From Ischnura elegans (lineage: Eukaryota; Arthropoda; Insecta; Odonata; Coenagrionidae): a stretch of 64,000 nt of DNA. The first letter of the stretch is position 1. Every line of letters starts with the position of its first letter. The DNA lies in assembly GCF_921293095.1 (NCBI RefSeq), contig NC_060257.1, forward strand, positions 54,348,968-54,412,967, given 5' to 3'. Positions 18,597-64,000 of the stretch are shown in pieces. The notes beneath the pieces were generated by a model. That model ran no database searches, had not been told where the DNA came from, and worked only from the letters and a program-made list of their open reading frames with translations. The translations under genes and the position numbers were made by a program.

Positions 18597-19655
18597 TCTT
18601 CATATTTAGAGACAAAGTAGTCGCAGGGGCCTAAATCTGGAGAATATGCTGGGTGAGTAAGCAGTTCGCGGCCTAATTTATGGATTTTTGCCATGGTGAC
18701 CATACACGTGTGCACCCGTGCATTGTCTAGACGGCACAGTTCTTTTTTCTCCTTCAAATGCGGTCGTTTTTCCTTCAAATCAATATCGGATCCGTCCAAA
18801 AGCTCTTCATAATATTTACAGGTGATCTTTTTACCCTTTTGTAAAATATATATGCGAATGGCACCACGTGCATCCCAAAAGCTGTGGCCATGACCATGTT
18901 TGCCGACAGATACACCTTAGCCTCTTAGGTGTACGTTCATCCTCAGAAACCGATGGTCTTGCTTGTTCTTTGGTGTCTGTAGTATAGCGATGGCTTACTT
19001 TTCGCCCACGGTTACGAAAGGGCGAAAAAACTCGAACCGAATCCATCTGAACATCGCCAAGCACTACTTAGAAGTTCATACTGTTATGTTATGCTCCATG
19101 TAGACAATGGCGGCACCCATCGCGCGGATAGCTTTTTCATGTCCAAATATTCATGTAAAATGTGATATAAGCGCTCATTTGAGATGCATATAGCATCAGT
19201 CATCACACGAATATTCTTTTTTTAAACGTCCAATATCATTCCATGGGTTTTTTATCGATGATTTCTAGCGTCAAAACCTCTTTCGGGCGTCCTGAACGTT
19301 CGACGTTACTTCTACTGGTACGACCACAACGGAATTCAATAAACCACTTCTTTAACATTGGAATTGATTGCGCAGAGTTTCCATAGTGTTTATCAAGCCT
19401 TTCTTTGGTTTCAGCGTCAATTTTTATGCCCCATAAATAATGTTTAGTCAGTGCACGAAATTCAGTTTTTTCCATTACCGTTAAAATTCACAGGGTTGTC
19501 TGCTTTGAATGGCTGTCCAACGCAAATTTAAAGACTTAGCTAGCTCAAAATTTTACAGCTGTTTACTGATAGATAGTAACGAAAGGGAGTATTGTTGTAT
19601 TTATGGTCCCTACGTGAGAAATGCAAAAAGTCACGGACTTATCAAACAACCCTCG
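18590..19655 (-). mobile_element. mariner DNA transposon, truncated and broken
   Basis: On the minus strand the transposase starts at 19475 (MEKTEFRALTKHYLWG, then CGRTSRSNVERSGRPKEV), continues near 19010 (HRYTTDTKEQ) and ends near 18581 with LDNARVH and HPAYSPDLGPCDYF, the last Asp region of the DD34D core. Frame breaks lie between these pieces, and the C-terminus and right-hand terminal repeat are missing. The intact end is CGAGGGTTGTTTGATAAGTC on the minus strand, ending at 19655 beside a TA. Confidence 0.85.
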
Positions 19656-41599: not shown

Positions 41600-42262
41600 A
41601 GAAGAGGTGGTCCAAGGATTATATTAATCAAATATTCAATCGCTATGTCACAAATTACAATATCACACCTTTAACGCCAGTATTATAAATAAAATTCAAA
41701 CATCTAAAGAAACCGGGAACAGTGTTTATGTGGTATGGATAGAATTGCGTGAATTACTATTCGATTCGGAAAATTCGCGTCGCGTTAACGTGAAATGTAG
41801 CTAAGTTTTACCGAAAAAATTAATTCAATTAAAAATAAAATACAAGACTAAAGATTAATAATCCACGGAGATAAACGCTCCGTTAGGTTTAAAGCATACG
41901 ATTTAGATTAATACTACTATTTTTTCTTCCGGAAATAAATCAATTTAATGCGTAATGGCACGAGTAAATTAAAACATGGCGCTCCATTAGGCTTAAAGCC
42001 TATGCAAATTCAGCAACAATGACCTGAGCCCGTAACTAAGATACACCCTTGGAATACTTCACTCGATTCACTTGAAAGCTAATTGGCGAGGAAGAGTCAA
42101 TAGCGATTCCAAGCGAATTACAAAGTAATCCAAAGCTTACGAAAAACTTGTAAGCATCTTTACATCATTGTGTGAAGAGTACTACAACGACCGCATTGAA
42201 CGTAGAGAATTCCATTTCTCCCCGGCGCAAAACATTTCCGCTCTATATCCAACACAGAGGGT
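41600..42262 (+). repeat. 5' block of repeat unit A
   Basis: Motif GCTCC(A/G)TTAGG(T/C)TTAAAGC occurs at about 41877 and 41988. The stretch 41980-42262 aligns with 56445-56718 in unit C, including GGCGAGGAAGAGTCAATAGC, and both end in a donor-like GTAAGTTGGA. Probably a 5' noncoding exon or promoter block of the duplicated gene. Confidence 0.5.
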
Positions 42263-42480
42263 AAGTTGGAGGCCTCTAATGATATCACATAGACAAGTTT
42301 AATTCAGTCAATATATTTACACAATACCATGAATTAATAAGTAGCGCCTAATTCAATTAGTTAAATAGGGTTTGGCTAATATCAAGAAAACTTTATTTTC
42401 AGTGCGTCATCGCTGAGCCTGTTGGTTTTTCGTCCGATACCATTTTCATTGCACCCTGGGCAAAAGTCAAGAAATCAATC

Positions 42481-42885
42481 ATGGGAATTCGGAAGGCTAT
42501 GAAGTGGTTGCAGCCCTCTAATTCAATGGCTATGGCATCCAGTGCCCTCATGATGGTCCTGACGACGTTGATCAGCGACCGAAGAAGAGAGGACACCAGC
42601 GTGCATCCAGAGGAGGTGCAACACCTCACCATTAAGACGGTGGGAGGATACAACCTGGACGAGGCGATGTATAACGTCATACCAGCAGAAAAGGCGAGGA
42701 GGCGGACCTCCAAGATGCAAGAGCTGTATGTACTCATCCAAAATTGGAAGAATTTGGAGAAACCCGTGATATTACAGGAAGAACAAAATTTTATCCTGAA
42801 AAATGATGTTCCAATATCCACCAAACACATTGGAAATGGTGGATTATTTTCATCTGTAAGTTTGGAAAATGTATCCTCCAGGTAA
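42481..42885 (+). CDS. Unrecognised duplicated protein, copy A (134 aa)
   Basis: Function unknown. The ORF starts MGIRKAMKWLQPSN, has a hydrophobic run (MAMASSALMMVLTTLIS) near residues 17-33, a basic patch (DRRRED), a polar middle, and ends SLENVSSR. It aligns throughout with 56884-57291; the only length change is a three-base indel near 42695 that keeps the frame, which argues for past coding constraint. The open frame extends upstream of the ATG to an acceptor-like TTTTCAG at 42402, and the end TCCTCCAG|GTAAAC is donor-like, so this may be an internal exon rather than a whole gene. No signal peptide or known domain. An antisense ORF at 42399-42830 is probably a shadow. Confidence 0.5.
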   Translation: MGIRKAMKWLQPSNSMAMASSALMMVLTTLISDRRREDTSVHPEEVQHLTIKTVGGYNLDEAMYNVIPAEKARRRTSKMQELYVLIQNWKNLEKPVILQEEQNFILKNDVPISTKHIGNGGLFSSVSLENVSSR

Positions 42886-43137
42886 ACGAAACCGCTTATG
42901 TCTAAATTCTAATCTCAACAACTCTATTATGTCTTTTTCTTTTGAATTTTGTAAGTTCGAATTTAAATATTTCTCAAATTTCGTTTTCTTTTGTGATGGA
43001 ATAAATTTTCTTTTGATAGCATGCGAGTCAGCATGCATTCAACATTTTTACTGCTATAATCCGCCTCTAAGTTATTACATTTTATTTAAGAGTCCCATAC
43101 CCATTGCTGACACAAAAGAGACTGCATTGACCTTTCC

Positions 43138-43305
43138 ATGACACGCATAACTAATGAAAATGTAATGAGAGTAACTGTTGGCATCTACACAAATGGAACC
43201 TATGAATATCCCGGCTTCATCTTTCTTACCACTACAATAAAAATTCTCAAATGGAGAAAGGCTCAGGGAAAGGAACTTTTTTATATTTCATTGGCTGATA
43301 GTTAG
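43138..43305 (+). CDS. Short ORF homologous to 57824-58054
   Basis: A 55-codon reading starting MTRITNENVMRVTVGIY, then PGFIFLTTTIKIL. Unit C has the same frame from about 57800 (ITRITSGNVVRVTFG ... PGLIFLQTTLKIL), but the two diverge after GK, and there is a two-base indel just upstream. It could be a later exon of the same unknown gene. Weak evidence. Confidence 0.3.
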   Translation: MTRITNENVMRVTVGIYTNGTYEYPGFIFLTTTIKILKWRKAQGKELFYISLADS

Positions 43306-43329
43306 GTCTACCAACCAATATCCAAAAAA

Positions 43330-44090
43330 AACCTTCTAGTTGATACACCGAGTGAGTTTGAAGAAGATAATGTTGATAATATTCTCATAAAAACTCTATT
43401 TCCTTAATTGTGTGTGTTCATAATTTTTACCCTGACAATTCCACCAGTTACTTGTTGTAAAATGATTCTTTCAATGGGTAAATAATACATTTACTGCAAT
43501 GATGATTGGCAGATTTTGTTAGCACACGCAGGAAAAACCTTTTATTTATAAGAGGTTATAACGTACACATCCACTGCAAACAAGAGAAACAGTTACATCA
43601 ACATAAACATAACCTTGGCAACGCCTTTTCGAATTCCACCCAGGCGCTGCTTATTTTGTTAATAACGTACTCCAACAGATTTACTCACGGAAACTTTTTT
43701 ACACCAGTAATTATCGATGGATCACAGCGTATCGGATGTGCGTCAGAGACGAAGAAGGCATTGCCATCTATAACCTTCCACAATCATTCCAATGCGCATT
43801 AAGCTTTTAGGCTTACAGAGCCATCTCTGGTACAAGACTATTGTCTTGTACCAGATATTGGAGCGAAATGCGTCGTGCTCATGAAAGTTAAATGACTAAA
43901 TACCCGATGATAATTACGAAAACAAAACATGCTCCATTAAAAGACATTGACACCTTAATCCGGTGAGTAAAGAAGAATTATACTTTAAAAAGCAGAGAAT
44001 TTATTTTTTTAATTGTGCATTGACTTTGTTGAGGAGCCATTCCTTTCACAACGAACCTAAAACTTAAGTTATTTCACTACGTCGAACTTC
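43330..44090 (+). repeat. 3' block of repeat unit A
   Basis: Aligns piecewise with unit B: 43345-43410 with 48865-48915, 43430-43520 with 48940-48985 plus 51940-51980, 43735-43870 with 52040-52190, and 43925-44080 with 54055-54190. The last piece carries CATGCTCCATTAAAAGACAT followed by a GGTGAGTA donor. Relative to unit B its exon frame is shifted by two bases, so this copy looks decayed. Confidence 0.5.
43826..43855. repeat. Perfect 13-bp hairpin in unit A
   Basis: TCTGGTACAAGAC pairs with GTCTTGTACCAGA across a four-base loop. Unit B keeps the right arm at 52167-52177 and has another inverted partner downstream. Confidence 0.75.
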
Positions 44091-44208
44091 AACTATACCA
44101 CTCCATGATCAGTTGATTTGATTCGGAAGCTGCCATCTTCGTGCATCTGCCATCATCAACTCCAAAGAATGCTCCAACAATCGCACTACCGCCACAGACA
44201 AAACACTT

Positions 44209-46580
44209 AGAGGCCTATTACGAACGGCTTACCGCATGCGGTGAGATACCGCCTGCGGTATCATACCGCCCCGAAGCGCGTTTACCGCCCCCGAGCGATT
44301 ACGAGTGGCCACCGGTCGGTATCATACCACGGCTTAGGGGTCGGTATGATACCACGGCCAGCTACCCCGGTGGTGAGATACCGACCCCCTAATGGCGGAC
44401 GTCTGTTTACATTTTTCGGGTCGAGTTGGCGTTTTTAAAACAAAATATCCGACGATAGAAACTCGGAAGCTATCACATTTTGTGTTATTTATAATATTAA
44501 TGTCTGAGTAAGCGTATAAAATACAAAACTGGAGCCGACTGGAGCAGTTGAACAAAAAAAGTATAATACCCATATAACAACAACGTTGTAGCCGTCTGAG
44601 ATGAGAGAGAGAGAGCCACGGCCGTAGGAGATGGATACGTTGATTGTAAGTTGACCCTCATTCATTTATTTAATTAGAACAATTTGGATGTTTTTTATTG
44701 TCCGCAATGTTTTTATATGCAATAAAATCTTCCATTTCTTCATAGGTGCCGGAAAATTCGTCGTTAAGGACTGCCTGTGCTTGTATTGTATGGTGAATAC
44801 AGCTGTTGCTCGCCGCTTGGAGATTTCTACGAACATCTTTTGTGGCAAAATATTATTTTTTCAACGTGACAACTTCTTGTATTGCAAGGTGAATACTACT
44901 TTTGCTCGCTGCTTGGAGATTTCTACGAACATCTTCTGTGCCAAAGTAGTGTTATTTTCAACGTTATAACTGCTTGAATAGTGAGGTGAATGTAACTTTT
45001 GCTCACTGCTTGGAGATTTCTACGAACATGTTTTGTTTCAAAATAGTGTTATTTTCAATGTGACAACTACCGTTAATCACAGTACCAGTGGTTGTAATGC
45101 ACAAAGTTTGACGAGGTTGACAAACATCTGCCAGGAGCTGTAGTTATCACTGTTCCATTGTGGTTGGTTTTTAAACAGTGGTTTACGCTATCGAGAAGTG
45201 TCTGATAGTAATGTAAAGATTGTCAGTGGCGTTTATACCTTCGTCATTCACCGCAGAGATAACATTTCACGATCAAGCTATCAAGTTCAAAGTCATGTGT
45301 GAAATTTGTTTATACACTAGTATATCAATTTCGTACCAAGGAATTGTAGTGAGAAAAGTAACCTGTGCCACTTGCGTGGGATAATGTGAGGCTTAAAATC
45401 AGTGATTATATAGTTGTTTTCATCATAGCGAGCTCTTGATTGTAATGTTTACGTGATGAATATAAGAATGGTAGTGACTTCCAGTTTTTTATGATCGTAT
45501 TTGCCTGTTTACCATTATTTATAATGGTGTGAGCTTGTATCGATTGTGGATTTTACCTGAAATATTGAAATAAGTTGTAGCCTGTGTGTGTGATTGCCGA
45601 GGAACCGATTCGCGATCTCACATGTTTATTGTGGGCAGACTGTTTTGCTGTGGTTGTGTACCCGTGATTAAACCAAAGAAATGGTGAAACTCTGTCATAT
45701 TATTTTGAAATAAAATTTTATTTTAACCAGAAGTGAATATCTTGTGTTTTTTAATTCTCCATTGCTTTTCATAGATAGCAGCCAAAAAGTTATTTTTCAT
45801 TATTTTTAAAAGTGCCTTTCTTGTTCTCTGAATTTGCATTAGGTTTCCAAACCCCGTTACTAACACGAAAGGAATGCAGAGCAACAGATATTTTGTCATT
45901 TCACAGATGTTGAGTGTCGTATTGTCTGTGATTAAGGGTCTCCAGCTAAGTATTCGTGGTGGATTTTCATATATTTTTTAAGAATGCACATTTCGGTCAA
46001 AGCTCTTATGGAATTGGTGGTTCACCTTGCCCGTTGGCCCTAAAAGTACTTCTATCGTAATTTTTCGATGGTCTGCCACGCAATTTGTCACTACCTGCGT
46101 CTGCTCATACGTGATTTTTTGATGATATCTTCCGCAAGTCACTGCTAATTATTGTTTTATTCGACTTTTTATCCTATAAGTAAGAATTGAGGAGCAAAAT
46201 TCGTTCATTTGTCAAACTTTTAAGGTGAATTAACGAAGGACACATCCTTATTAATCCATAAATACCACTAATTGTCTTTATCGACTGCCAACAACTCTTG
46301 CCGAAATATTCGTCTGCTAGGAACAGTTGCCGCGGAATTGGAACACCGCACGCCCTTGCCATTGGCTACACCATTTTCGGGCTGAAGGAACTCAGAATTT
46401 TTCATACAAACGTCACTTCCGCCGCATCGCTCCTTACCGACCCCCTGAGATGTACTCTCCGCCCGGCGGTGACTTTCCGACCGTCCCACTCGTAATCGCA
46501 AGGGGCGGTATGATACCGTATACCGAACGAAAACTCCGCCCGGCGGTAGCGTACCGCCCGCTCGTTCGTAATAGGCCCCT
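44209..46580. mobile_element. DNA transposon with long GC-rich inverted ends, 2.37 kb
   Basis: Ends AGAGGCCTATTACGAACG and inverted AGGGGCCTATTACGAACG, each followed for about 130-180 bases by matching inverted CCGCCCGG/GGTATGATACCG-rich sequence. Target duplication is not clear. The interior has no transposase; it includes a (GA)n stretch and a 97-bp tandem repeat. Superfamily not assigned. Confidence 0.7.
44767..45070 (+). repeat. Tandem repeat, about 97 bp x 3
   Basis: GCTTGGAGATTTCTACGAAC recurs at 44815, 44911 and 45008 (spacing 96 and 97), each within a longer repeated block. The spacing does not keep a reading frame. Internal to the 44209-46580 element. Confidence 0.75.
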
Positions 46581-48417
46581 TAGTCATTCCTTGCACGGTC
46601 TAAGAATATGAGAAGGTCTGGACACTCTCCGTTCAGGCATGGTCATTTAATGAAGCCGTTTCCCATTGAGGCCGGTAGGGGCGCCACCTATCCTGAAGGG
46701 CAAGTTTCCTACGCATCTGTATAAGATACATCAGTAATTATGAACTAATTTATGGCAAAAATGAATATAAACACATCGACAGTGGTTACTAGTTAACAAG
46801 TTCATATGCACTTAACATCATATAGCGAAAAATACCTAGAAATCGTTCTCATACGTGAGTATTAATCAAATGGAAGGCGTTGGATTTCAGCTTCGTCTGC
46901 TTCCATACCTTTGTAAAATCAGTTACAGCCATAACGAAAGATTGTCAGCAGTTAAAACCTTATGTAGTGAGGAAAGGTATTTTTAAGGAAATAATTATTT
47001 ATAGCTATCTTGTGGTAAACGTTAATATAAGTTGTCATAGAAGCTACGTACGCACCATTGCCTCTGAGCCCATCGGCATGTTTCCACGGCCTTATAAGAA
47101 TATAGATGTTATTCCTTGCTTTCAAACACTATTAACAAATATAATATCAGAAACGCAAACGGCTTCTTACCAAGGCCGAAGTGAAATACTTCTTATGAAG
47201 TGACGTATGTTAATGTTTTTAATCTCCTGAGTCTCGATCAAGTGATAATAATAATGGCAGGGCACAGCAAACCTAAAAAAAATGATTCTATCCTAGGGAC
47301 ATTTTGCGGGTATAGAATAGGCATATTTAATCGTTGAACAGGGTGAATAATTTCCGGAAGTACCATTATTACCGTTAAAGGCTATTTTATAACGATGCTT
47401 GTCTACTCACCAAAGGAATAATTTGAGATTTAAGGAAGTAAAATACCATATGAAAGATAAGAATGAAAGAGATTTTGCAAATAATTTCCGAATAAACTTC
47501 CACGAAAACAGTGCAATGGATATAATCCGAGGGATTTGCTGATGTCTGATCACTTTCAGGTGCTGGCAAATCTGAAATATTATCCCTCGCCCAAAAATAA
47601 GACGAGTAGTACGACAGAAACCACAGGCTAATACTGCTAATACGCGGTGAATGTACTTTTCATGAGAGTTGCACGCACCATCGATAACAGTTGCATTAAA
47701 AGAAATCATCGAAAGAGGTATTAAGAATGAAAACGATTCACATTTTTCCAACTTATATAATGTACACACACATCAAATCTACATTTCCAGAATGATTACG
47801 CAATGCTATTGAAACTGAGATTATTTATACAATCAATGCAAGGTAATGTCATGAAAAATAAATTTTAAGTACTCACAATTTAACATTTCTATTAATTCTT
47901 TCTGTTACTAATTTCTATTTCTAATTACTAATCATTCTAAGAGATTCAATTTAGTAGGAGAGAATGATGAATAGTTGATGAAAGCCGTCGCACATCTTGC
48001 ATTTTCTCAGTGTTACTTCATTCCTCCACTATGAATGACATTGACCACTGGAACAGCAGAACCTGTAATTTAAAATGTATAAATTTTGGAGCTTTAGCAC
48101 ACCAAAAAAAGGAATCGTACAGCTATTTCATCGCTTCTCAGGGTCCTTGGGGACTCTAAAAAGCGAAATCCCCGAAGTCTTGTGGCCATAACCAGTGGTG
48201 CAACGCGGTACCACACACGTCCACGGCATTTTCCTTTTTTCAGTAAATCCGCGATATATATCCACGAAATATTAATGTAGAACAATAAGGAAATAATGCA
48301 GAAGACTAACATTCGAAAATAAATGAAAACTAATTCTTAATTAATAACAAAAATGACTATTTCCACTCACCTGTAGTATGCGCTCAACAATACGGAAATT
48401 AACTTACCCGCTAATTC
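46581..48417. other. Intergenic, no gene seen
   Basis: AT-rich. The 120-codon minus ORF at 47407-47769 shows no domain or partner copy and is treated as chance. Confidence 0.4.
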
Positions 48418-48990
48418 TTGCCCTCCAGAATACGTGGCGCCGCCCCGGCAAACGTGCGGCAGGTCGAGGAAACGACTTCAATAAAAGACCATGGGTTCCC
48501 AATGGAGTGGGATAGGAAGTGTCATGGGGCTGATTCCTTGTTTAAATTTTGGGAAACTACGTTTGAAAATGAGAATTATTCAACAATTTCTCATAACGAT
48601 GGCAGTGTAATCATGCGAAAAATATTTATTTGAAAGGTTAGAGGCTATTAGAAGGACACAAGGTTATCATTAAAATAAATATATGCCAATTAGAACAAAT
48701 AAACTAATAGTGTTCACCCAACCACTCATGATAAAATTCAACACAGCGGATCCTCGCAAATATGGGTCACGGTAAGCTTGCAAAACTAAGAGATATTGAA
48801 ATGCTGTATCGTGATAATCTATTCATCGAATGCAATCGTAAAAAAGACGAAATGAAACCGATCGAGTTTGAAGAAGTGAATGTTAATGTTATTCAGATAA
48901 AAACTCTATTCTCTAAATTCAATTTGTTAGAGATTATTTATTCATTCTACCAGTTAATCAGGCAAAAAGATACTCTAAGTGGTTTGAAGT
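48418..48990 (+). other. Left part of repeat unit B with open frames
   Basis: Two unrecognised plus-strand ORFs: 48418-48633 (71 aa, contains WDRKCHGADSLFKFWE) and 48762-48995 (77 aa, contains IEFEEVNVNVIQIKTLF). Part of the second matches unit A near 43345-43410. The frame of the second runs into the LTR at 48991, so its natural end is lost or lies at 51940 onward. Function unknown. Confidence 0.3.
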
Positions 48991-51939
48991 TGTAACGCTT
49001 CAATTAATTTCTCTTTTTTTTCACGTCACTTACAAATATTTTATTAAACTTTAAATGATACAAACTCGGGAGCAAGGGAACACCCGTCCGCCATAACTAT
49101 CACAATCCCACTTCCCTCTTTTCATCTCCTCCCGCGCCGTCAACAATCACAACAATTACCTCACTCCACCTCTGCTGCTTATTATCCTCCTGATGTCCTC
49201 CCGCGCCGTCAACAATCACAACAATTACCTCACTCCACCTCTGCTGCTTATTATTGCTTGAATTACGTCACACCAAAACCAAAACAAACCACTCAAAATT
49301 TGGTGTTACATTTCACTCCACTTCACACACTGGCATTTTATTATTCTATTTGTCACACTTCTTTTACTTATCACTCCCCTTCTTTGTTCACTTTACTCAT
49401 TCATTCATCATTGTCATCATTCATTCCAAGCATATAAATATTAACTATGTACTTAATAAATAATCAACAAACACTTTTGTAATCATCCATATCAAATTAT
49501 TACACATGTATTTACCCTCATTTTTTTGTCATATCACCCTTCCACCGTCTCTCTAGGGTGTAATTACTTTCGCCACTTATCTAATTGCCCTATTTTAAAT
49601 TTTACTCTCTTCCTTTTCTCTTTCCTCCTTCTTCTCTCCACCCGATTTTCGTCCTTTCTTACGTTATTTTCACGTATCCTAAATATTCTCGCGATCTTCT
49701 CAGAGTCACTTTCTCCTGCTGATCTAAGCTCGGTTATGTGTAGTGATGGGTTGATCATGAACGATTCGATCAAAAAGATTGAATCACTAGGTGAATCAAA
49801 TGACTCATGATTCATTTCGTTAAACAAGTCGATCATCAATCATCAATCACTCCGACTTCCGGTTTCATATCAATCATCTCGGTTTCCGGTTTGATTCAAA
49901 ATTTGGAACGACCGATGCTTAATCTCTTTTCGTCAGGGCAGAAATAGTTGTGATAAAATTAAATACTATGTTATGAAGAACTGAATACTTGTGTAATCTT
50001 TCTCTTAAATTTTTTCCAGCAGTTATCAGTATTAATAACACCAATACACGTAAAAGGAAAATATTAAGATGACTCCTGTAGGAGAACGTTAAGAAGTAGA
50101 AGTTAAAGCTGGTTATATTTTATTGTGCCGTTCATAAAATTATCCTGCAGATCAGATTCATGCATAGTGTGTGGTGTATTTTGTGTTATATTTTGATCAA
50201 CTATAGTTAGAAATTATTTCATTAGTGTTAAGAAACTGTGGCAGTTTCGCCTTCCCAAATATTTTCATGACACTGCTTCCTTCATTTTTGCAATCTAATT
50301 TACTCATCTAGGAATTCATAATTAAAATAGGTTATGAAATGATAATATGGATAGCAATCAGCATTACCAATGCTCTTCGCAGATGAGGCAGTATTTATTC
50401 GATTATTCAAAGTGATTTATTACATCCATTGATTGAGTCTTTTCGATCTTGATTCCTTTTGAGTCTTTTCGATCATGATTCCTTTTGAGTCTTTTCGATC
50501 ATGACTCCTTTGAGTCTTTTCGATCATATAGTGATTGAATCTTGATTTGAGTCTTTTCGATCATAGTGATTGAATCAATTGATTGAATCACTTATGTGAC
50601 TCGATTCAAAATGATTGAATCACTAAAATGATCGACTTTGCCCATCACTAGTTATGTGATTGTTTCCTTCCGCCATCATGGAATTGACAAGGTGCTGTCG
50701 CTCCGGTTGGCGCGCCTCCGCTACATTGTTTAGTGCAGGCCGCTGATCAGCTGATCTCTCGCCCGGCCGGTGAACGTATCCATCGCCGCGAAAGTTTTTG
50801 TCTCGTCGTCCCTCTCTCTGCTGGCTCGACGCTTGCCATTCCCGTTGCTGTGATTTCTTCGAGTCCCATCCGTGCTGCTGGTTGTGCTGGGATGCGCTTC
50901 CCGATGTCCTCCACGTACGCTCCTTACGGGGTCCTGATGTATGCCTCCCATCGAACGTCGGGACCTTCAACTGTACCGCGGATGCCATTGTGACGCTGGG
51001 TCTCGTGTCTTTCTCACGCACGATGCGTTGGACTGCTTCCTCATCTAGCCCAGCTGCCTTTGTGGTGGATTGTTGTCCTAGCTCGTCCGCCATCTTACCG
51101 GGCACTTCCTCCACTTGTTTTTCCTTTCTCCCCTTACCTTCTCGCCGAAACGCCGTTAGCCGTTCGTTGATGCTTTTCATTGTCTCCTCCAACTTTTTGT
51201 CTCTTTCTTCTTGTTTGCTATCTCGCCTCTCCAGTTCTGCTTCCCATTTTCTATCTCGACTATCCCTTTCTTCTTCCCATTTTCTATCTCGACTCTCCCG
51301 TTCTTCTTCCCATTTTCTATCCCGACTCTCCCGTTCTTCTTCCCATTTTCTATTTCGACTCTTCTATTCTTCTAGCATCTGTCTTAGTAGCACCCGTAGG
51401 TCACTGTATCCTTGGTCCTGCGTCTCCATCTCAAACTCATGTGTCTCTATATCTACCCCTTCTTTTATCAAAAGCTGTTTTAAACGCTCCTGCAGCTCAA
51501 ATTTTTCCCCTTGGGTCGTCGATCCCCGATCCCTCAACAAACTTTGTAAATCCACCTTTTTCAGTTCGTAAAATTTTTTCACTCCCGCCATCTTGAATAC
51601 CCGCTCTCTACGACGCGACTCGTTCCTCAGGCGTTCCGTGGTCTCGATCCTCTCGTGAAGTCGTACCCTACACGTTGCGGCGCCAAAATGTAACGCTTCA
51701 ATTAATTTCTCTTTTTTTTCACGTCACTTACAAATATTTTATTAAACTTTAAATGATACAAACTCGGGAGCAAGGGAACACCCGTCCGCCATAACTATCA
51801 CAATCCCACTTCCCTCTTTTCATCTCCTCCCGCGCCGTCAACAATCACAACAATTACCTCACTCCACCTCTGCTGCTTATTATTGCTTGAATTACGTCAC
51901 ACCAAAACCAAAACAAACCACTCAAAATTTGGTGTTACA
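48991..51939 (-). mobile_element. Fossil LTR retrotransposon (Gypsy/Ty3-like), broken
   Basis: Long terminal repeats at 48991-49310 and 51689-51939, both starting TGTAACGC and ending GGTGTTACA, flanked by a four-base target duplication AAGT. Next to the right LTR the minus strand shows a primer-binding-site-like TGGCGCCGCAACG. gag-like coding lies on the minus strand between about 50660 and 51600; no pol region is present. The left LTR carries an extra internal repeat of about 69 bases. The LTRs are otherwise very similar, so insertion was fairly recent. A hAT element sits inside it. It is broken and heavily deleted. Confidence 0.8.
49741..50650. mobile_element. hAT MITE inside the LTR element, 910 bp
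   Basis: Ends TAGTGATGGGTTGATCATG and inverted TAGTGATGGGCAAAGTCG, with perfect 8-base target duplications GTTATGTG at 49733-49740 and 50651-50658. Contains a minisatellite of GAGTCTTTTCGATCATGATT units at about 50430-50560. It shares its terminal ten bases with the 5944-8787 element. Noncoding. Confidence 0.92.
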
Positions 51940-52300
51940 AAGTAATAAATTCCCCGCAATGTCGATTGATAGCTTCACTGGCTGAAACCTTGCTATCCCA
52001 TTAAAAGTCGAGTTATTACAAGGGTACCAATGTTCGTTGAGCGAAGAAGGAATTGTCATCTTTCAAAAAAAATACTATTGCACCCCTCCACAATCATTCC
52101 AATGCGCACGCCGCGTTTCGACTCACAGATCCATCATCTGATTCAATATCTGGAGAAAGACAATCGTCTTGTACCAGCCATTGGATCTAGACCCGTCCAT
52201 TGGATCAAAATCCAACAGCTGGTACAATACGATTGTCATTTTTTCCGGATATTGGTTTAAAACCCGTCGTATGCACTGAAATAATTTCCATGTCCAGGGA
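51940..52300 (+). repeat. Unit B sequence right of the LTR element
   Basis: Continues the alignment with unit A (43480-43870) that is interrupted at 48990, including CCACAATCATTCCAATGCGC at about 52088. This shows that the LTR element entered an existing unit. Confidence 0.6.
52159..52237. repeat. Long hairpin, 20-bp stem with one mismatch
   Basis: GACAATCGTCTTGTACCAGC (52159-52178) pairs with inverted GACAATCGTATTGTACCAGC (52218-52237) across 39 bases; the loop holds TTGGATC...ATCCAA, which can pair further. It is the unit B counterpart of the hairpin at 43826-43855. Confidence 0.75.
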
Positions 52301-52309
52301 TTTCTAGTT

Positions 52310-52460
52310 AAGAGCTAACTGGAGAGCCTCAAGGGATTTTTTAAATCGTAAGCGTATGTACCAGATGCATCAGTTACATTCATCAAAAATTTTCATTTTC
52401 ATCGTGAGAGCAATTGAGAGAAAGTATAATGCCAATGGCATAAACTGAAGCCGTTATTAA
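52310..52460 (+). repeat. Direct repeat with 53385-53535
   Basis: GAGCCTCAAGG, CAGCGTATGxACCAGA and TCAATGGCATAAA-type segments recur about 1.08 kb downstream in the same order. Noncoding; origin unknown. Confidence 0.5.
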
Positions 52461-53983
52461 TACTTATTTACAAGCGGCTTCGCGCGGCAAATCCCATAAC
52501 CCAGAGTCAGACATACCCGTGTCCACTGTAGGTGCCAACCTGCGCGGAGCTTCAGGCAGACTCACGCTCGCACTACACATCCTTTTTGGGTTGGATCTGA
52601 CGCTCGTAGACGCTTGACTTGAGACCTCCTTTGTCCATAAGTTTCTCTTCACTATTCAAAATATAACGGAAAGTCCCCATTGTCACCCGATAGTTGTCAA
52701 GAAACGTTGACGTTTCATATTCCAAATCCATATGCACATGTAAATGCACCAAAGGATGAAGTTCGCCATGAAAAAATATAGACTTAGCCGGGATTTACAA
52801 AAGGTTGTACTCGCCCATCGTCCTCTGATAAATTCGGTTCACCCAACAAGAGCTTTTTTTTACCAGCTAGCATCTGACGTCTTATAAGGCAAGTACTCTC
52901 AAGCAGGCATAGTTCCTCGAAATCCATATTTACGCTGTTTTTCAAACATGGCTAAACTCACGTATGTCTGTGAAGAATACACAAGTCCACTGGCAGCGCA
53001 AGTTCGCTTGCAATGGACGAGCCCTACGCCTGTAGCTACTCAGCTTGTTGCCAGTTCTTGCCTCTCGAGTACGTGTGAGACCGAAGCCGCCTGAATACGC
53101 TTCCAGTGCACGACCAGCCTTAAGTTCGTCTACATTGTAATGAGGAAAATTAATGATTTTGGAAATGCACAATTGTTTTGAAAAAAGAACAGTTCTAAAA
53201 AAAGGGTAGAATATCACCACAAACAAAGTTAATATAAAACCACAGCTTTCGCGCAAGTAGGACCTCGAAGTGACTTACGATCCCCGAAATCCATCGAGTA
53301 CATCTGGAAAGGTAAATTTACATGTTTCTAGTATGAGAAAAAATTCATGCCAGCAGAATATTGTTCGTAAGTTAAGGCCGCGCGACAGAGCCTCAAGGCC
53401 TTTTCATATCGTCAGCGTATGAACCAGACACATAAGTTATATTCATGAAAAATTATGTTTTCATCGTAGAGTCTGAGCAAATGAAACATGTCAATGGCAT
53501 AAATCGAAGCCAAATCTGCTAAATAGAAAACACTACCCATGGCAACCATGTAAATAATAACAGCGAAATTAGAATTTTACACATTAAAATAGCCTAAAAG
53601 CAATCAATATGAGAGTAAGTGGCATAGTAAGTTGCGTAATATATTTTAGAAAGAGATTCATAAAATATAGTATGCTAGATCTGGTGAAAAGTGCATCGGC
53701 CGATGTCTGTGGAAAATACTCATTCATTATATCGTGATGGGCTTAATGAGGAAGATACTGAATAGTTATGCTTAAATGTGAGGACGCATCAAAGAAAATT
53801 ATTGATGTACATCTTCCCGTCCACAATGAATGCATATTCTGCATATGCGGTAAGATTCAGTTACTTTACAGTATTTATTTATTTAATTGTATAGTCAATA
53901 CGTCTCTTCTTCTTATTGAATAAATATATAATATTCTATATAATTCTAATCTAATAATTCTTGTCCCCCAACGGACCTTATAA
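52461..53983. other. Unit B middle, no gene seen
   Basis: Contains the second half of the direct repeat (53385-53535) and otherwise no recognised exon or element. Confidence 0.35.
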
Positions 53984-54092
53984 CAGACACAGAAATGAAG
54001 GCAAAGATGCATAATCATCTTCTGCAAATACCGGAAGATAACCACGACAAAAACGAGCATGCTCCATTAAAAGACATTGACAGCTTTTTCAG
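53984..54092 (+). CDS. Candidate exon of unknown gene (unit B)
   Basis: Between an acceptor-like TTATAACAG and a strong donor AG|GTGAGT is an open frame with ATG at 53995 reading MKAKMHNHLLQIPEDNHDKN, then HAPLKDIDSFF. Unit A holds a decayed version at about 43895-43972. If spliced to the acceptor at 54826 the frame continues into a Cys-rich stretch (CCWSCHQQKDSC). No known domain, no signal peptide; prediction only. Confidence 0.3.
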
Positions 54093-54826
54093 GTGAGTAT
54101 AAGAATTACAGTTTAAAAAGCAGAGAATTTATTTCTTTTTATGCAATGACTTCGTTGAGGAGCCATTCCTTTCACAAGGGACCTAAAACTTATATAACTG
54201 CAGTCTATTATAAACACTGACCATATTCGTAATAAAACTTAACTACCGTTCGTAATATAACCGCCTCTTTAAAAATGCTAATATAACCGACCCGTGTATG
54301 GATCATATAAGACACCGTGCATGGCGCTCATATTATGGGATTATGCCCATTCTTGAGAATTCCATATATTTTTCCGAGTGAGTAAGAAGTTATCATGACG
54401 TAAAATCTTTTGTATACCCAAAACATGGGGCTGCAACGTGGGAATGGAATTTGAAAAGCAGAACTTCAAATAATACCGTCTTCATATCAAAGTTTCCATG
54501 TGGCTCCTCTTCTTAGGACTTACTCATTACTTATTGTTAGTAGGTCGGTCCATTTGATCCTTATCATTCTTCTCTAGCACCATTAATTCAAAGATCACCA
54601 ACATAGATTTCCTCTAGTTTTTCAACACCCATACCTCAATTCCGTAGAGAAGCTTACTCCAAATATAAGTTCGGATAAATTAAATTGAAACTTGACGCTT
54701 GAACGTGGTGGAAGTGCTATAAAGTACTTTCATTGCTAATCTAATAAATTGATTCCTTCCTTCTGTTTCAATTGACAAATTTACCATTCAATTTATAACT
54801 TTCTACAATTCGATATTTCAATCAGG

Positions 54827-55008
54827 TGCATCCAAAGCAAGCTTCCCTGGAATCACTACAGCTGCTGTTGGAGCTGTCATCAGCAAAAGGACTCGTGCAA
54901 CCCACAACCACGGGAAGCAAAGAAAAGAAACATGAAAATAAATATTTACCTATGCCTTGTGTTTTGTACATGCATTTGTGTTTTTACTTGTTCATACTAG
55001 AATAAAGA
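54827..55008 (+). CDS. Candidate terminal exon, Cys-rich
   Basis: Follows TTTCAATCAG. In phase with the exon ending 54092 it reads CIQSKLPWNHYSCCWSC and further to a TAG at 55000, beside AATAAAG. Another frame reads a basic tail (ISKRTRATHNHGKQRK) to a TGA at 54933. Which, if either, is used cannot be told. Confidence 0.22.
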
Positions 55009-55129
55009 ATCATTATCATGATTATTTCTTTCACTTCATATGATTCCCCATGTATGGGTATCATTCAGTGATTCAACCCTAAGGTTAGTTTGCATAGGTG
55101 AGGATGGCGCTAACTCCGAGCTAAGTTAT

Positions 55130-55305
55130 TAGCGTGTGATTTGCACAAATTCAGGCGAGGAAGACCAGTTCCTTTCTCTGAGCCTCCTCACACTTAGAGA
55201 ATTTTATTTTCAGGGGTCTCCGAATGTTTCATCCGAGATTCGAACCCGTGACCCCTCGATTATCGGCAAAGCCACGTACCCAATAACCACCATGCTCCGT
55301 TAAAT
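55130..55305 (-). mobile_element. tRNA-derived SINE, different family
   Basis: The minus strand carries GTGGCTTTGCCGATAATCGA (A-box-like) and GGGTTCGAATCTC (a good B box), then a body rich in GAGGAGGCTCAGAG. The head is tRNA-like but is not a foldable tRNA. Borders approximate. Confidence 0.6.
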
Positions 55306-55539
55306 AAGTGACTAAATTAAATTTTTATTAAATATTAAAAGTATTTCAATAGTAATATCTTTTTAAAAATTCTTGATATGCGTGTGATGAAAATATTTCC
55401 AATGTATGGTCCGTAAATATTCCATACAGCACTGGTATATTTCCGGGTTACGGGATATATATATTCTATGAATTAATAATATAGTCCTCGTGTATCAGAG
55501 TACCGTAGAAAAGCAAGTGCGGTACGCATAGAATTACCT

Positions 55540-56450
55540 GACTTCCTATACGAGACGAAATATCCACGTCGCGATAAGACAGCAATGTCTCAGCATTTAA
55601 CTAAAAAATGCATTTAATTAAATAAATAAAAAGACAAGCCTGAAGAGAAATACTACGAAGAGATAATCACTCCATTACGTTTTGAGCACATTCTATGAAA
55701 AAATAAGTGTGGTCCAAGGAGTAAATTCATAAAATACTCAAATGTTAGTTCATAAATATTGACTTAAAATTACCAAACTTTAACGCCAGTATTATGAAGT
55801 AAATTTAAAAAGGATTATAGAAGGTAGAGAACGTTTTGAAGTACGTGGTTTTCCATTCGAGTTTGAATATCCACTTTGCCTAAAGCTGGAAGGAATCAAA
55901 CTTTTTCTGAAGAAAGGATACATACACATACATATGATATCATTCAAGATAAAAAGACAAGCCTTAAGAGGATAAACCAAGCGGATATAAATGCTCCATT
56001 AGGTTTAAAGCATATGATTCATATTTATATAATTATAATGTATTTTAAGAAAAAAAGTCAATCCAAAGCATAATTGCACGTGGAAATTAGAACAGAACGC
56101 TCAAGATGGTGAAGGTATATTTACATTAACAATTTTTTAACGCCAATTTAGAAACAAAATTTACATTTCATAATAAACAGAGAGCAAATCTACTTTGATA
56201 CACATACAATTTACCATATGTGTCAGAATATCCACGTAGCGTAAAGCCGGAAGGCATCATAATTATTCTGAAAAACGGATTACATTCGAGATTAAATAAA
56301 AGCACGAAGAGTAATACCACTCACAGATAAACGCTACATTAGGTTTATAGCACATTATTCGTTTATATATTATAAAAATATTATTTTCTTCTAAGAAAAA
56401 AATCTGTTAGGTAATTTCACATGGAAATTATAACACGATACTCCATAAGG
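55540..56450 (+). repeat. Tandem 5' blocks of unit C
   Basis: Three diverged copies of a block of about 330 bases, with landmarks TATCCACGT(C/A)GC, AAGACAAGCCT(G/T)AAGAG and GCTCCATTAGGTTTAAAGCA at about 55672, 55990 and 56331. Related blocks precede unit A at 41880-42000. Noncoding. Confidence 0.5.
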
Positions 56451-56883
56451 CTAAAATCCCATACTAATCCCGCAACAATGAACCGAGCCCGTTACCAAGA
56501 TACATTCTTGGAATCATCACTTGATTCACTTGAATGCGAATTGGCGAGGAAGAGTCAATAGCGATTACAAGCGAATTACAAAGCAATCCAGCACTTACAA
56601 AAAGCTTGTAAGAAATATTGCATAATCGTGCGAGAAGTATTACAACGACCACATTGAACGGAAAGAATTCCAATTACCTCCCAGCGCGAAACGTTTTGCT
56701 CCGTTACCAACCAAGAAAGTAAGTTGGAACCCAATTATAATTCCACACGGAAAATTTTCCTCGGTCAGCAAATTTACAAAATACCATTAAATATTAAATG
56801 ATTCAGCGCGTAATCCCTTAACTAGTGGCTTATCTTTCTATTCCATTTTATTTGCGTCCAGGGAATAAGCCAGAAGATCCATC

Positions 56884-57291
56884 ATGGGAATTCGGAAGGC
56901 GATGAAGTGGTTGCAGCCATCTAATGCTGTTGCATTGGCATCCAGTGCCCTCATGATGGTCCTGACGACGTTGATCAGCGACCGGAGGAGAGGGGACACC
57001 AGCGTGCATGCAGAGAAGGTGCAGCACTTCACCATTAAGAAGCAGGGAGGATATAACCTGGACGACGCGATGTACAACGTCAGACCAGCTGAAAAGTCAG
57101 CGAGACAGAAGACCTCCAAGATGGAAGAGCTCTATGTACTCATCCAAAATTGGAAGAATTTGGGGAAACCCGTGATATTACAGGAAGAACAAAATTTAAT
57201 ACTGAAAAATTATGTGCTAATATCCACCAAAAGCATTGTAAATGGTGGATTATTTAAGTCTGAAAGTTTGGAATATGTATCCTCCAAGTAA
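56884..57291 (+). CDS. Unrecognised duplicated protein, copy C (135 aa)
   Basis: Homologue of 42481-42885, full-length with no internal stop: MGIRKAMKWLQPSNAVAL, hydrophobic run ALASSALMMVLTTLIS, RRGDTSVHAEKVQHF, and a C-terminal half containing MEELYVLIQNWKNLGKPVIL, ending SSK. Differences from copy A include many amino-acid replacements but only one in-frame codon indel. The ATG directly follows an acceptor-like TGCGTCCAG at 56861 and an in-frame TAA, so here the ATG is the likely start, or the exon is entered in another phase. The region around it repeats unit A. No known domain. Confidence 0.5.
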   Translation: MGIRKAMKWLQPSNAVALASSALMMVLTTLISDRRRGDTSVHAEKVQHFTIKKQGGYNLDDAMYNVRPAEKSARQKTSKMEELYVLIQNWKNLGKPVILQEEQNLILKNYVLISTKSIVNGGLFKSESLEYVSSK

Positions 57292-57700
57292 ATGATCCCA
57301 CTGATGTCTAAATTCTAATCTCAACAACTCTATAATGTCTTTTTCTTTTGAATTGTGTAAATTCAAATTTAAATATTTCTCAAATTTCGTTTTCTTTTGT
57401 GATGTGCCAATATCCACCAAACATTATGAAATGGTGGATTATTTTCATCTGAAAGTTTGGAAAATGTATCCACCAAGTAAATGAAACCACTTATGTCTAC
57501 ATTATAATTTATACAATTCTATTATGTCTTTCTCTTTTGGAATGCTTAAATTCAAATTGAATACTTCTTAAATTGTGTTATGTCCTAATTCTGCAATTCC
57601 ATTTTCTTTTGAAATGTGTAAATTCAAATTTAAATGTTTCTAAAATTCCCTTTTGATTTGAAATTTAATAAATTTCTAATTGAAAGCATGCAAATCAGCA
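57211..57700 (+). repeat. Internal tandem duplication of the ORF 3' end
   Basis: 57211-57403 (last codons plus 3' flank, GTGCTAATATCCACCAAAAG to TTTTCTTTTGTGAT) is repeated at 57404-57600 (GTGCCAATATCCACCAAACA), and a third partial copy of the flank runs to 57700. The duplicated ORF end keeps the stop codon context GTATCCACCAAGTAAATGA. Confidence 0.7.
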
Positions 57701-57823
57701 TGCATTCATAATTTTTTCTGCCATAATTCGCGTCTAAGTCATTTTATTTACGAATCCCATACCTATAGCTGACACCCAAGAGACTGCATTGACCTCATAA
57801 CACGCATAACGAGTGGTAATGTA

Positions 57824-58054
57824 GTGAGAGTAACTTTTGGAACCTTAACTAAAGGTGCCTCTTTAAATCCCGGCTTGATTTTTCTTCAAACTACATTAAA
57901 AATCCTCTCAGAGAGAAACTGTTCTGGGAAAGGAACTTGCCCGGAGAATGTGGTATATAGGCGTCCTTCAAAACAGCGGACAGATGATACAACCACCTAC
58001 GCAAGTTTGAGAAATTGCTTCATGCTTTATTGGTGGAAATGCAATAGAATTTAA
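57824..58054 (+). CDS. Short ORF homologous to 43138-43305
   Basis: 76 codons beginning MRVTFGTLTKGASLNPGLIF and continuing past the end of similarity to unit A. No domain. Possibly a later exon of the unit C gene. Confidence 0.3.
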   Translation: MRVTFGTLTKGASLNPGLIFLQTTLKILSERNCSGKGTCPENVVYRRPSKQRTDDTTTYASLRNCFMLYWWKCNRI

Positions 58055-60967
58055 GTATGAACTATGAATGGTAATTGAATATAAGGAATAGAGGCCTTGA
58101 ATAGAAATTGTAAGATGAAGTGCTCCAACTACCGGCAATCAATCGTCTATGTTCGATAAGCACCTTCGTGAGAGCAAAAATACCTGTAACTCAGACCTGG
58201 AAAATAAAAATAGAAAAGAGAGGTGAAAAAAATTGATTTTCTGTAACAATACGAAATAACTAAATTATAGTTTCGGATTTAATAAGATCAGAGTCAAATT
58301 AGTTTCATAAATCTTCAGCTTAGTTTAGTGACATAATATTTTTACTTAAATCGCTGCTAATTATACTCATTCCTTACGAGCAAACTAAGGTAAGAACACA
58401 AATTATTTACCAAATCCGCTGGTACAAAATCTAGCGTTGTAACACGGCTTTCTAAAGCTTTCCAAATTCAGTAATGTCCTTGAAAGAAACTCATTCATTC
58501 ACGACTTTATAAGGAAAATATTCAAACATCAACAGGCACCGTCATATCACGATATGAGGCTATCTCTATTCGCTTAAGATTGCCCAGATATTTCGCTTAA
58601 CATCTGGAATGCTGTGACGCATGGATTCCATAATAAAGTGTCTACTATCTCGACCTATTTACGGTAAACTTGACCCAATTCCCTCACATATAAACGTATT
58701 ACTAGCAAATATGCGCCTTGTATTGCAAGGATAAATACAGATGTATGACGAAATTTCTAGAGCAGGCTTTTTGATAAGACCACTATTTCTAGGTTATTGG
58801 ATTAATTAAAACAAGCTTGGTCCCATTTGGTTTTGATTTATATCAATATAATTAGATCCATTGAAAGAAATAGTAGTTTCAAACAAGAAATAAAATCAAG
58901 TTCACCCAAGTAGGTAACCGTAACTAATAAAGCATAAGCAGAATTTTCTATAATTTAGCCTTGAACGGCTTTGCACAATGGTGGAAACCACAAAGTTAAA
59001 ATAAGATGTGACTTCACACCTTCCTTCCACTAAAAGTACACAAAAAACGCAATAAATACGATTTATAATCGGTTCAATAGCATAGAATTTTAATTTAATT
59101 TAAAACTTGATGCATAGCATATCATAAAACTAAATCTCACTTCTTACCAAACTTCACCTACATACTTAAGCACTATAAGAATTTTTTAAAGGCATTTGAC
59201 TCAGTAAATTTTCAAAGATGACTAGATATATTTACTAAATGACGATAAAGATTTCTCCCAAATTTAATGAATCCTAACCGCAGTGAATATTTGGTCACTT
59301 TTTCTTATCAAACTGCACGAGGGAATTAAAATAAAATCACGCTCAAGAAAAAGTTACGGGTCCAACGACCAATTTAACTTGGGTGTGAAAACTTTGGATG
59401 GAAAATCTACGGTTACACACACCGCAGCGGAGACTACTGAATTTATGATTCAATTAAATTTGTACTATTAAAGTTAATTTCATTGTCGATATAGGTTCGC
59501 AGTGCCACTGATGTGGTCTAATACCGAATTAAAAGATTCTGTCAGCCATTCGGTTGGATTTAGCACCTGATTTTACCCAACATTCTTTCCATTGAACGAC
59601 TCACAATTTACTGTACATTCAACTATAATACTCCGCCAAAAGAAAAATTTTATGCGCTTAAAAATACAAGAAACGAATTCAATAACATTTTAAAATGTAC
59701 ATCTACCCTTTATTAAAAGTATTGCAATAATTGTAATTTCAACGAGTTTAAGTAAAGGAATGAGAAAATAGTTTTTTTGCGTGATATAAATTTCTTGGGC
59801 AACCACTCAGATGGAATAACGAAATTTATAGCTAGCTTATATAACAAAATTATGATTTTTTGGCCCAAACATATAAGAATAATAGGCAACCCTCATACCG
59901 CCCAAGCAGGCCCTCCCAAACAAATTTCTAGCTACGAGCCTAATTCGTGTGGCATTACTTGTCCAAGCAAACGAATTTTTTTTTTATTACTACTATAGAA
60001 TCACTGGTTATGTTATTGTTACAAAAATTTGTGTAATATTCGTTAAGCCATACGAATTACGATCAAAAATAACCATGGGCAAGTCACCATAATTTATTGA
60101 AGAATTATGGAGGGCATTCAGTAATTAAGTCAAATCAAGTACGTCTTATGAGAAGGGTGTTACGATAGGCTAAAATATCTTTAAAAACTTATAAGCAGAT
60201 AATTAAGGGAGAAACCATTCGACGTGAGGTGTTACAGAAGAATAATGAAGATCAAATGAGTAATTTGTGTGAGCAATGTTGACCTCCTTAGAAGAGTGGG
60301 ATAAAAGAGAATTTTTCGAGAAAACATATGAAGAAGATGGTAAACCTTAATCGTCAAAACATGACAACGATGGCCCGATGAGGGCAGCCACTGAATGAAA
60401 AGTGATAAGGAATAACGTCAAAGAAAGGTTATGGATTCTGTTAATAATAATTATTATTAATTTTTACTAAATCAAAACACTACTAATTATTTTTAATAAT
60501 TATTACTAATTAGTAGTATTTTAGTAATGGATGAAGGAATTCAAGCAAAATAATCGAGAGATAAAAAATTAGCTTATCGGAAAATTCAGTGGAGAGCTAT
60601 TAACCAGAGAGGAAAAACCTATCTAATGTTTATTGACGTGATGATGAATTTTTAATATAACTACCTGCCATTTATTAAATATTGTGTTTCAATACTCTTT
60701 TCGGATGCTTGAGCGAGAATTGAATAAATTTATTCAAGCGTAGCGATCAAACATCAACAAAGATTGCGGTATTTCTCGTTTGAATCATGAGTGTCACGGC
60801 CATTTTTTTAACAGAATTCTCACCCAACGCTGATAAGGTAGGTAGAAGATATTATGATTACAAGGCTATGAGAGGCGGCCTTAAAATAATATCACTGAAG
60901 GATTTACCATGAAAATTCAATATCAGCGATCCTAGAAAAAAATGCAGAGCAAAAGTAGGAGAACCCC
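58055..60967. other. Intergenic, no gene seen
   Basis: AT-rich 2.9 kb without recognised exons. A near-palindromic AT tract (TTAATAATAATTATTATTAA and ATTACTAATTAGTAGT) lies at 60438-60530. Confidence 0.45.
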
Positions 60968-63325: not shown

Positions 63326-64000
63326 GTAAGTTCATATAAATCATGCGGGAGTTTTTTGGTCTTTCAAGTGATAATAACTGTATACTTACACAACTTATGG
63401 TAATCATATGCAAATCATGTAGCCACCAAGAGAGAGTTATTTTTTCGCATGCCCATAACCGATGCTAAAGACTTCACTTTGTTAAATAATATCAAAATTT
63501 TGCAAAGCGGACTGTATTTCTACAGTTCACAACTTTCACTATGGTATCAAAAATTACTCTGGAAATTAGAGTTTATTACTCAAAATAAGATTTCAATGAC
63601 TAAAGTAACGCACCTCAAATCCCTCCAATAGTACTAAACCTAAAATGTCATGAAAATTAAGGTAATAACTAAGAGGCAGAATTTTTAATCTATTCAAATT
63701 GATTTATTTATTTATTTATTTCCTTACGATAAACGAGTAAATTCTAACCTTTAAAACGATTTTTTTTTTTTCAAAAAAATTTTACTCTACCCAACATAAG
63801 CCATTGCCGCAAAATGTACTTTCCTACACAACAGGGAAAAAATACAGGTTCAATTATGAATTCAACCGACTACGATTTCAACAAAATAACATAAATATAA
63901 ATTGAAAATGACAAAATGTGTTAAAAACCAAGGAAAAAATAAATGTTTGGAATATAGGAAGCGAAATTTCATTTCTGTTTAGCGATTCCGGATGGAACAG
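63326..64000 (+). other. Trypsin D intron 2, partial
   Basis: AT-rich, with a (TTTA)n microsatellite at about 63704-63720. No next exon is seen before the window ends. Confidence 0.6.

What the first reader, a model, noticed from the sequence alone, without database searches (positions are those of the whole stretch)
41600..58060. Undescribed duplicated gene family in tandem units
Units A, B and C share ordered blocks: 5' repeat blocks, a 134-135 codon ORF, a short MRVT-type ORF and a 3' block with splice-donor-bearing exons. The ORF pair stays open with one in-frame codon indel, but no known domain is recognised. Unit A joins the parts kept separately in B and C. This may be a fast-evolving, lineage-specific gene.
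Basis: partly seen in the sequence, partly recalled or inferred. Interest (0 to 1): 0.72.

Follow-up and report, generated by a model that had tools for sequence, protein, structure and literature searches.

The report
Tandem family of small unknown genes
This looks like a real family of about two dozen small, two-exon animal genes in tandem arrays, whose roughly 135-residue protein is kept intact by selection but resembles no known protein domain, so it is a sound but fairly ordinary case of a gene family without known relatives.

Summary
The core holds; several details do not. The window lies in a 1.72-Gb genome, apparently an animal's. The 134/135-codon ORF of A and B has 24 copies in clusters on C12, C3 and C103. 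Of 25 near-full copies, one old relic included, 23 are open. Codon models on these 23 reject neutrality (omega 0.40; 2 delta lnL 55.9). They share a gene anatomy: TATA-like box, untranslated first exon with GTAAG(T/C) donor, short intron, AG acceptor (22 of 23), one coding exon, AATAAA. This is a small protein-coding gene family with no convincing Pfam or PDB relative. The 'MRVT' ORF is not conserved. The 'splice-donor' block belongs to a second, spliced, apparently non-coding module found upstream of 13 of the 24 copies. A's 3' part also carries a solo LTR and a dispersed repeat. Unit A is atypical: acceptor lost, one codon deleted, selection not demonstrable. Expression, function and occurrence in other species could not be tested.

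The parts
42118..42125 (+). TATA-like box of unit A (TTACAAAG; TTATAAAG in most copies)
   Evidence: aligned column: TTATAAAG in 18 of the 23 intact copies, TTACAAAG in 2 (A and B), TTATATAG in 2, TTGTAAAG in 1
42150..42260 (+). unit A untranslated exon 1 (5' end inferred, ~30 bp after the TATA-like box)
   Evidence: promoter plus exon 1 mean pairwise identity 85% against 48% upstream; indels not multiples of 3 in the 13 copies displayed
42261..42266 (+). splice donor GTAAGT, unit A
   Evidence: GTAAGT in 22 of 23 intact copies, GTAAGC in 1
42457..42458 (+). position of the shared acceptor, TG in unit A (lost); an upstream TTTTCAG at 42396-42402 could replace it (inference)
   Evidence: AG in 22 of 23 intact copies, TG in A; upstream motif read
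42481..42885 (+). gene X coding sequence, unit A (134 codons plus stop)
   Evidence: selection tests
43000..43005 (+). poly(A) signal AATAAA, unit A
   Evidence: AATAAA 517-525 nt after the ATG in 22 of 23 intact copies; at 783 in B, which has a duplication there
43517..43677 (.). solo LTR (161 bp) in unit A's 3' flank; target-site duplication GATTT at 43512-43516 and 43678-43682
   Evidence: 39 other places at 95-99% end at or within a few bases of these borders, eight pairs of them 2.6-2.7 kb apart (40 of 185 candidates scored); duplication read
43776..43856 (.). dispersed repeat present in both orientations, source of part of the A-C similarity
43898..44066 (+). fragment of module Y (exon 2 end and intron start)
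   Evidence: 85% to 54026-54192
53493..53849 (+). module Y exon 1 region (5' end not determined), donor GTAAGA at 53850-53855
   Evidence: 11 copies aligned, GGTAAG in 10 of 11; small ORF from 53703 not significantly constrained
53987..54092 (+). module Y exon 2, donor GTGAGT at 54093-54098
   Evidence: acceptor AG 11 of 11; GTGA(G/A)T donor 10 of 11
54826..55025 (+). module Y terminal exon (3' end inferred) with AATAAA at 55001-55006
   Evidence: acceptor ATCAG|G and AATAAAGAAT in 12 of 12 homologous copies aligned; no frame open in all copies translated
56576..56583 (+). TATA-like box TTACAAAG, unit B
56607..56718 (+). unit B untranslated exon 1 (5' end inferred); donor GTAAGT at 56719-56724
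56860..56861 (+). unit B splice acceptor CAG|G
56884..57291 (+). gene X coding sequence, unit B (135 codons plus stop)
57402..57574 (+). tandem duplication of the ORF end and 3' UTR in unit B (source 57212-57386)
57667..57672 (+). poly(A) signal AATAAA, unit B

Best explanation
Units A and B are two members of a family (here 'gene X') of small protein-coding animal genes. Each has a TATA-like promoter, a ~110-nt untranslated first exon, a ~120-210-nt intron, one coding exon for a 134-136-residue protein and a short 3' UTR ending at AATAAA. The family grew by tandem and segmental duplication; neighbouring copies mostly lie 4-14 kb apart on C12 and C3, and the five C3 copies form one clade in the tree (no support values computed). 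An upstream module (Y) with its own splice sites and poly(A) signal was amplified along with many copies. The protein has a positively charged N-terminus, one hydrophobic stretch (residues ~15-31), an invariant RRR (34-36), a conserved middle and a looser C-terminal tail. I think it most likely is a small protein entering the secretory pathway, by signal peptide or single-pass anchor (about even odds). Shown: copy number, open frames, purifying selection on the family, conserved gene signals. Inferred: transcription, the ends of the transcript, secretion or membrane insertion, any physiological role. Unit A is probably drifting and unit B probably still constrained. The confidence given is for the protein-coding family, not for the secretory guess.
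For: 24 places by translated search, the same 24 by DNA. 23 of 25 near-full copies open from the same ATG. omega 0.40 on these 23; 2 delta lnL 55.9 against omega = 1. Over the 24 places found by DNA there is one disabled copy (L032), where about 17 stops alone would be expected from the substitutions on the tree of the 23 if unconstrained (rough estimate); the other five frames of the 23 hold 14-221 stops. Donor GTAAG(T/C) 23 of 23, acceptor AG 22 of 23, AATAAA 23 of 23. Mean pairwise identity: promoter plus exon 1 85%, coding 89%, 3' UTR 81%, against intron 66%, upstream 48% and downstream 51%. The promoter/exon-1 block has 24 listed places in the genome; 23 lie at gene X copies. Hydrophobic stretch from residue 15, mean hydropathy 1.7-2.3 in the 4 copies measured.
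Against: No expression data. The 23 copies were chosen for being open, so their lack of stops is partly by choice. Unit A's branch omega is 0.89, not distinguishable from 1 nor from the rest; A and B pooled give 0.52 with omega = 1 not rejected at 5% (2 delta lnL 3.7). Pairwise dN/dS is moderate (median 0.43), and constraint is not significant in the C-terminal third (omega 0.69, 2 delta lnL 2.5). No homolog was found that would suggest a function, and the structure prediction failed (mean pLDDT 33). Gene conversion among paralogs could bias the selection estimates; it was not tested.
Confidence: 0.85

Rival explanations
1. The units are copies of a transposable or viral-like element, and the ORF is an element gene.
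For: Multicopy; dispersed elements are nearby, including a solo LTR and a dispersed repeat inside the A flank. One sub-threshold Pfam match to a virus family for the upstream-extended unit A frame (Adeno_PIX, 16.4 bits against a cut-off of 27), absent for the ORF from its ATG.
Against: 24 copies in a few clusters, and elsewhere only relics. Conservation follows promoter, exons and poly(A) signal and fades on both sides rather than stopping at element ends. No transposase, gag or other domain match above cut-off.
Confidence: 0.05
2. The X loci are decaying duplicated pseudogenes or non-coding segments, the frame open only by recent origin.
For: Unit A has lost its acceptor and a codon and looks relaxed. 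Two of 25 near-full copies are broken, and C5 holds fragments. Private codon changes lean to replacement in both A (19 of 24) and B (14 of 18), a crude count biased against silent changes.
Against: omega = 1 rejected for the family, and weakly for B alone (2 delta lnL 5.6); A-B pair 28.5 replacement and 16.5 silent differences over 316.5 and 85.5 sites, Fisher p 0.017.
Confidence: 0.07
3. A functional RNA is the real product and the ORF is incidental.
For: The untranslated first exon and 3' UTR are also conserved.
Against: omega 0.40; variable columns most frequent at third codon positions (77 against 66 and 49); no Rfam family at its gathering score in the window.
Confidence: 0.03

Closest known systems
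Tandemly expanded lineage-restricted ('orphan') gene families of insects and other animals (general knowledge, from no call)
   Same: short coding sequence, no known domain, clustered paralogs, moderate purifying selection, occasional pseudogenes
   Different: no family of this protein sequence was found in Pfam or PDB; whether relatives exist in other species was not testable
Trypsin-like serine protease cluster in the same window (PF00089)
   Same: also tandemly duplicated; surrounds units A and B
   Different: gene X has no Pfam match to trypsin; five probe peptides (four of trypsin exons) matched trypsin only in the window and its two neighbours L049 and L052, not in the other stretches held by then

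Membership tests
Tandem protein-coding gene family | several paralogs in clusters on the same chromosome | tested here: met
   24 places, 16 on C12, 5 on C3, 3 on C103
Tandem protein-coding gene family | conserved reading frame under purifying selection | tested here: met
   omega 0.40, 2 delta lnL 55.9 on 23 open copies
Tandem protein-coding gene family | shared splice sites, promoter and poly(A) signal | tested here: met
   by sequence only
Tandem protein-coding gene family | transcription and translation | not testable with these tools
   no expression data
Lineage-restricted (orphan) family | no known domain | tested here: met
   Pfam, 23 members; PDB profile
Lineage-restricted (orphan) family | absent from related species | not testable with these tools
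   the genome tool states it has no relatives for this genome
Transposable element | dispersed copies | tested here: not met
   clustered copies and a few relics
Transposable element | defined termini or target-site duplications | tested here: inconclusive
   the averaged alignment profile fades on both sides without a common end; copies were not checked one by one
Secreted or membrane protein | N-terminal hydrophobic signal or anchor | tested here: inconclusive
   17-residue hydropathy maximum 1.7-2.3 at residue 15 in 4 of 4 copies measured; no signal-peptide predictor available

The most novel reading that the evidence does not exclude
The arrays are a two-part amplified unit: a new small secreted or membrane protein (X) together with a spliced, polyadenylated, mainly non-coding transcript (Y) whose splice and poly(A) signals are kept while its reading frames are not. 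Y would then be a regulatory RNA co-amplified with the protein genes it neighbours.
Probability: 0.2. Interest if true: 0.55.

Novelty: new member of a known kind. Interest (0 to 1): 0.36.

Why it matters
It adds an apparently undescribed protein family, with predicted exon boundaries, that domain-based annotation would miss, and a set of 23 intact paralogs that makes its constraint measurable. The accompanying Y module offers a testable case of a possibly non-coding transcript amplified with a coding gene. It does not overturn anything known.

Tried and rejected
MRVT ORF as a second coding part: rejected, no shared start and frame-breaking indels in the 13 copies displayed. Antisense ORF at 42399-42908: rejected, over the 23 coding stretches the three minus-strand frames hold 38, 14 and 221 stops, with 5, 13 and 0 copies open. 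Module Y as a conserved protein gene: peptides from two of its exons gave only weak, partial matches in other copies; in its terminal exon no frame is open in all copies translated (10 of 12; the script's motif missed or misplaced the acceptor in the other two); the first 24 codons of its small exon-1 ORF have omega 0.67, not different from 1, and a shifted frame gives 0.50. Solved-structure, Pfam and Rfam searches gave nothing convincing. Structure prediction from the two window proteins gave mean pLDDT 33, so no fold search was run. A COX1 search meant to help name the species listed 43 matches, most with in-frame stops, which I take for nuclear mitochondrial fragments. Paper searches by topic: one search listed 1 paper, 12 of 101, 4; I saw the listings and starts of abstracts only, none of them about this family as far as those show; two peptide strings of the family occur in no held paper. 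The species was not identified. A trypsin exon against PDB gave vertebrate and mite trypsins among the best 60 of 137 and did not help to name the species.
Full report
Setting. The window is C12:54348968-54412967 of a 1.72-Gb genome held in 110 contigs. It carries exons of trypsin-like serine proteases and a mariner-like transposase piece (my naming from memory of the family; one search gives only the ORF). Most of the 43 nuclear COX1-like matches carry in-frame TGA, which fits an animal mitochondrial code. I take the host for an animal, probably an arthropod; the species was not identified.

The repeat. Units A and B align in ordered blocks, the longest 77% identical over 41835-42998 and 56291-57404, with parts up to 90%. 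The ORF is 134 codons in A (42481-42882) and 135 in B (56884-57288), 82% identical as protein.

Copy number. A DNA search with unit A (40 of 254 candidates scored, so a lower bound) and a translated search with its ORF found the same 24 places: 16 on C12 (49.26-54.41 Mb), 5 on C3 (9.5-13.0 Mb) and 3 on C103, a contig of 39 kb. The translated search lists 30 places in all: besides the 24, one old relic on C12 with stops inside, two adjoining fragments on C5, and three matches with E 0.27 or worse that I take as chance. Of the 25 near-full copies (24 plus the C12 relic), 23 are open over 134-136 codons from the same ATG; one (L032) shifts frame near codon 104 and the relic (L033) is broken.

Selection. 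On the 23 full copies a codon model gives omega 0.40 with lnL -2455.04, against -2482.99 with omega fixed at 1 on the same tree. Median pairwise dN is 0.080 and dS 0.181 (253 pairs). By region omega is 0.23 (codons 1-40), 0.34 (41-100) and 0.69 (101-end; there omega = 1 is not rejected, 2 delta lnL 2.5). The 23 were chosen for being open, so their lack of stops is partly by choice; but among all 24 places found at the DNA level only L032 is disabled, where about 17 stops would be expected from the ~370 substitutions on the tree of the 23 without constraint, a rough figure. The other five frames hold 176, 135, 38, 14 and 221 stops. Branch models of my own script give omega 0.89 for A (omega = 1 and the background value both allowed), 0.32 for B (omega = 1 costs 2 delta lnL 5.6) and 0.52 for both pooled (omega = 1 costs 3.7). 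Counting only private codon changes, A has 5 silent and 19 replacement, B 4 and 14; this cruder count leans towards relaxation in both and is biased against silent changes at codons where others vary.

Gene anatomy. In the 23 intact copies the aligned positions read: TATA-like box TTATAAAG 18, TTACAAAG 2 (A and B), TTATATAG 2, TTGTAAAG 1; donor GTAAGT 22 and GTAAGC 1; acceptor AG 22 and TG 1 (unit A); AATAAA 517-525 nt after the ATG in 22 and at 783 in B, which has a tandem duplication there. Mean pairwise identity is 85% in promoter plus exon 1, 66% in the intron, 89% in the coding exon and 81% in the 3' UTR, against 48% upstream and 51% downstream, gaps counted as mismatches. A search with the promoter/exon-1 block of unit A lists 24 places; 23 lie at gene X copies and one, at C12:48552155, has no ORF hit beside it. 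The promoter of the copy at C103:30869 was not listed there although one search matched it, so that list is incomplete. In the 13 copies displayed, exon 1 has indels that are not multiples of three, so I take it as untranslated.

The protein. Forty-four columns are invariant in 23 copies, among them M1 G2 A6 M7 K8 W9 L10, R34 R35 R36, G55 G56 Y57 and P95 V96 I97 L98 Q99. The most hydrophobic 17 residues start at residue 15 in the four copies measured, which hold 0, 0, 0 and 1 cysteines. No Pfam family is matched by more than 2 of 23 members, at best E 0.076; the frame of A extended upstream of the ATG had one sub-threshold match (Adeno_PIX, E 0.013, 16.4 bits against a cut-off of 27). The PDB profile search gives one chance-level 22-residue hit (E 1.3). 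The structure model from the two window proteins is useless. Secretory entry is my inference from the N-terminus alone.

Blocks from window 53207-55107 recur on C12, C3 and C103; the terminal-exon block lies 1.3-3.4 kb upstream of an X copy and on its strand in 13 of the 24 cases, B included; for the other 11 none is listed, in a list that scored 40 of 1021 candidates (compared). Aligned copies show an exon donor GGTAAG in 10 of 11, a next acceptor AG in 11 of 11, a GTGA(G/A)T donor in 10 of 11, and a terminal exon with acceptor ATCAG|G and AATAAAGAAT in 12 of 12. Yet the frames are broken differently from copy to copy, and the best small ORF is not significantly constrained. I read Y as a spliced, polyadenylated, mainly non-coding or decayed transcript unit; no transcript was seen. 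These copies were found by similarity to Y, so the counts are of copies that still resemble it.

Foreign pieces in A's 3' flank. 43517-43677 is a solo LTR flanked by GATTT on both sides; 39 other places match at 95-99% to nearly the same borders (40 of 185 candidates scored), eight pairs of them 2.6-2.7 kb apart. 43776-43856 is a dispersed repeat found in both orientations. 43898-44066 is a piece of Y. Hence A's '3' block with exons' is a mosaic and not part of gene X.

Verdict. A small protein-coding gene family without known relatives in the libraries searched, amplified in tandem. Its members in the window are one probably constrained copy (B) and one probably drifting copy (A). Unresolved: expression, function, and whether other species have it.

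Noticed in passing
window 1629-35446 and 63254-63331; L049, L052: Cluster of trypsin-like serine protease exons, including two near-identical sets (1.6-3.9 kb and 15.0-16.9 kb) about 13 kb apart.
   Followed up: partly
window 48991-49310 and 51689-51939: Nearly identical (99-100%) direct repeats 2.6-2.7 kb apart enclosing minus-strand ORFs, one with a sub-threshold SAP-domain match: looks like a young LTR-type insertion between units A and B.
   Followed up: partly
window 43517-43677: Solo LTR with 5-bp target-site duplication; 39 further places listed at 95-99% identity, eight pairs 2.6-2.7 kb apart, so the element was active fairly recently.
   Followed up: yes
window 18581-19487 (-): Mariner-like transposase fragments (family named from memory; ORFs).
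   Followed up: no
window 44778-45068: Three tandem copies of a 97-bp unit.
   Followed up: no
G000 C12:48552155-48552306: A gene X promoter/exon-1 block with no X ORF found beside it.
   Followed up: no
G000, many contigs: 43 COX1-like matches, most with in-frame TGA or other stops: probably nuclear mitochondrial fragments.
   Followed up: no
G000 C3:9514639 (-) and C3:9525125 (+): Two neighbouring X copies in opposite orientation, unlike the same-strand arrays.
   Followed up: no
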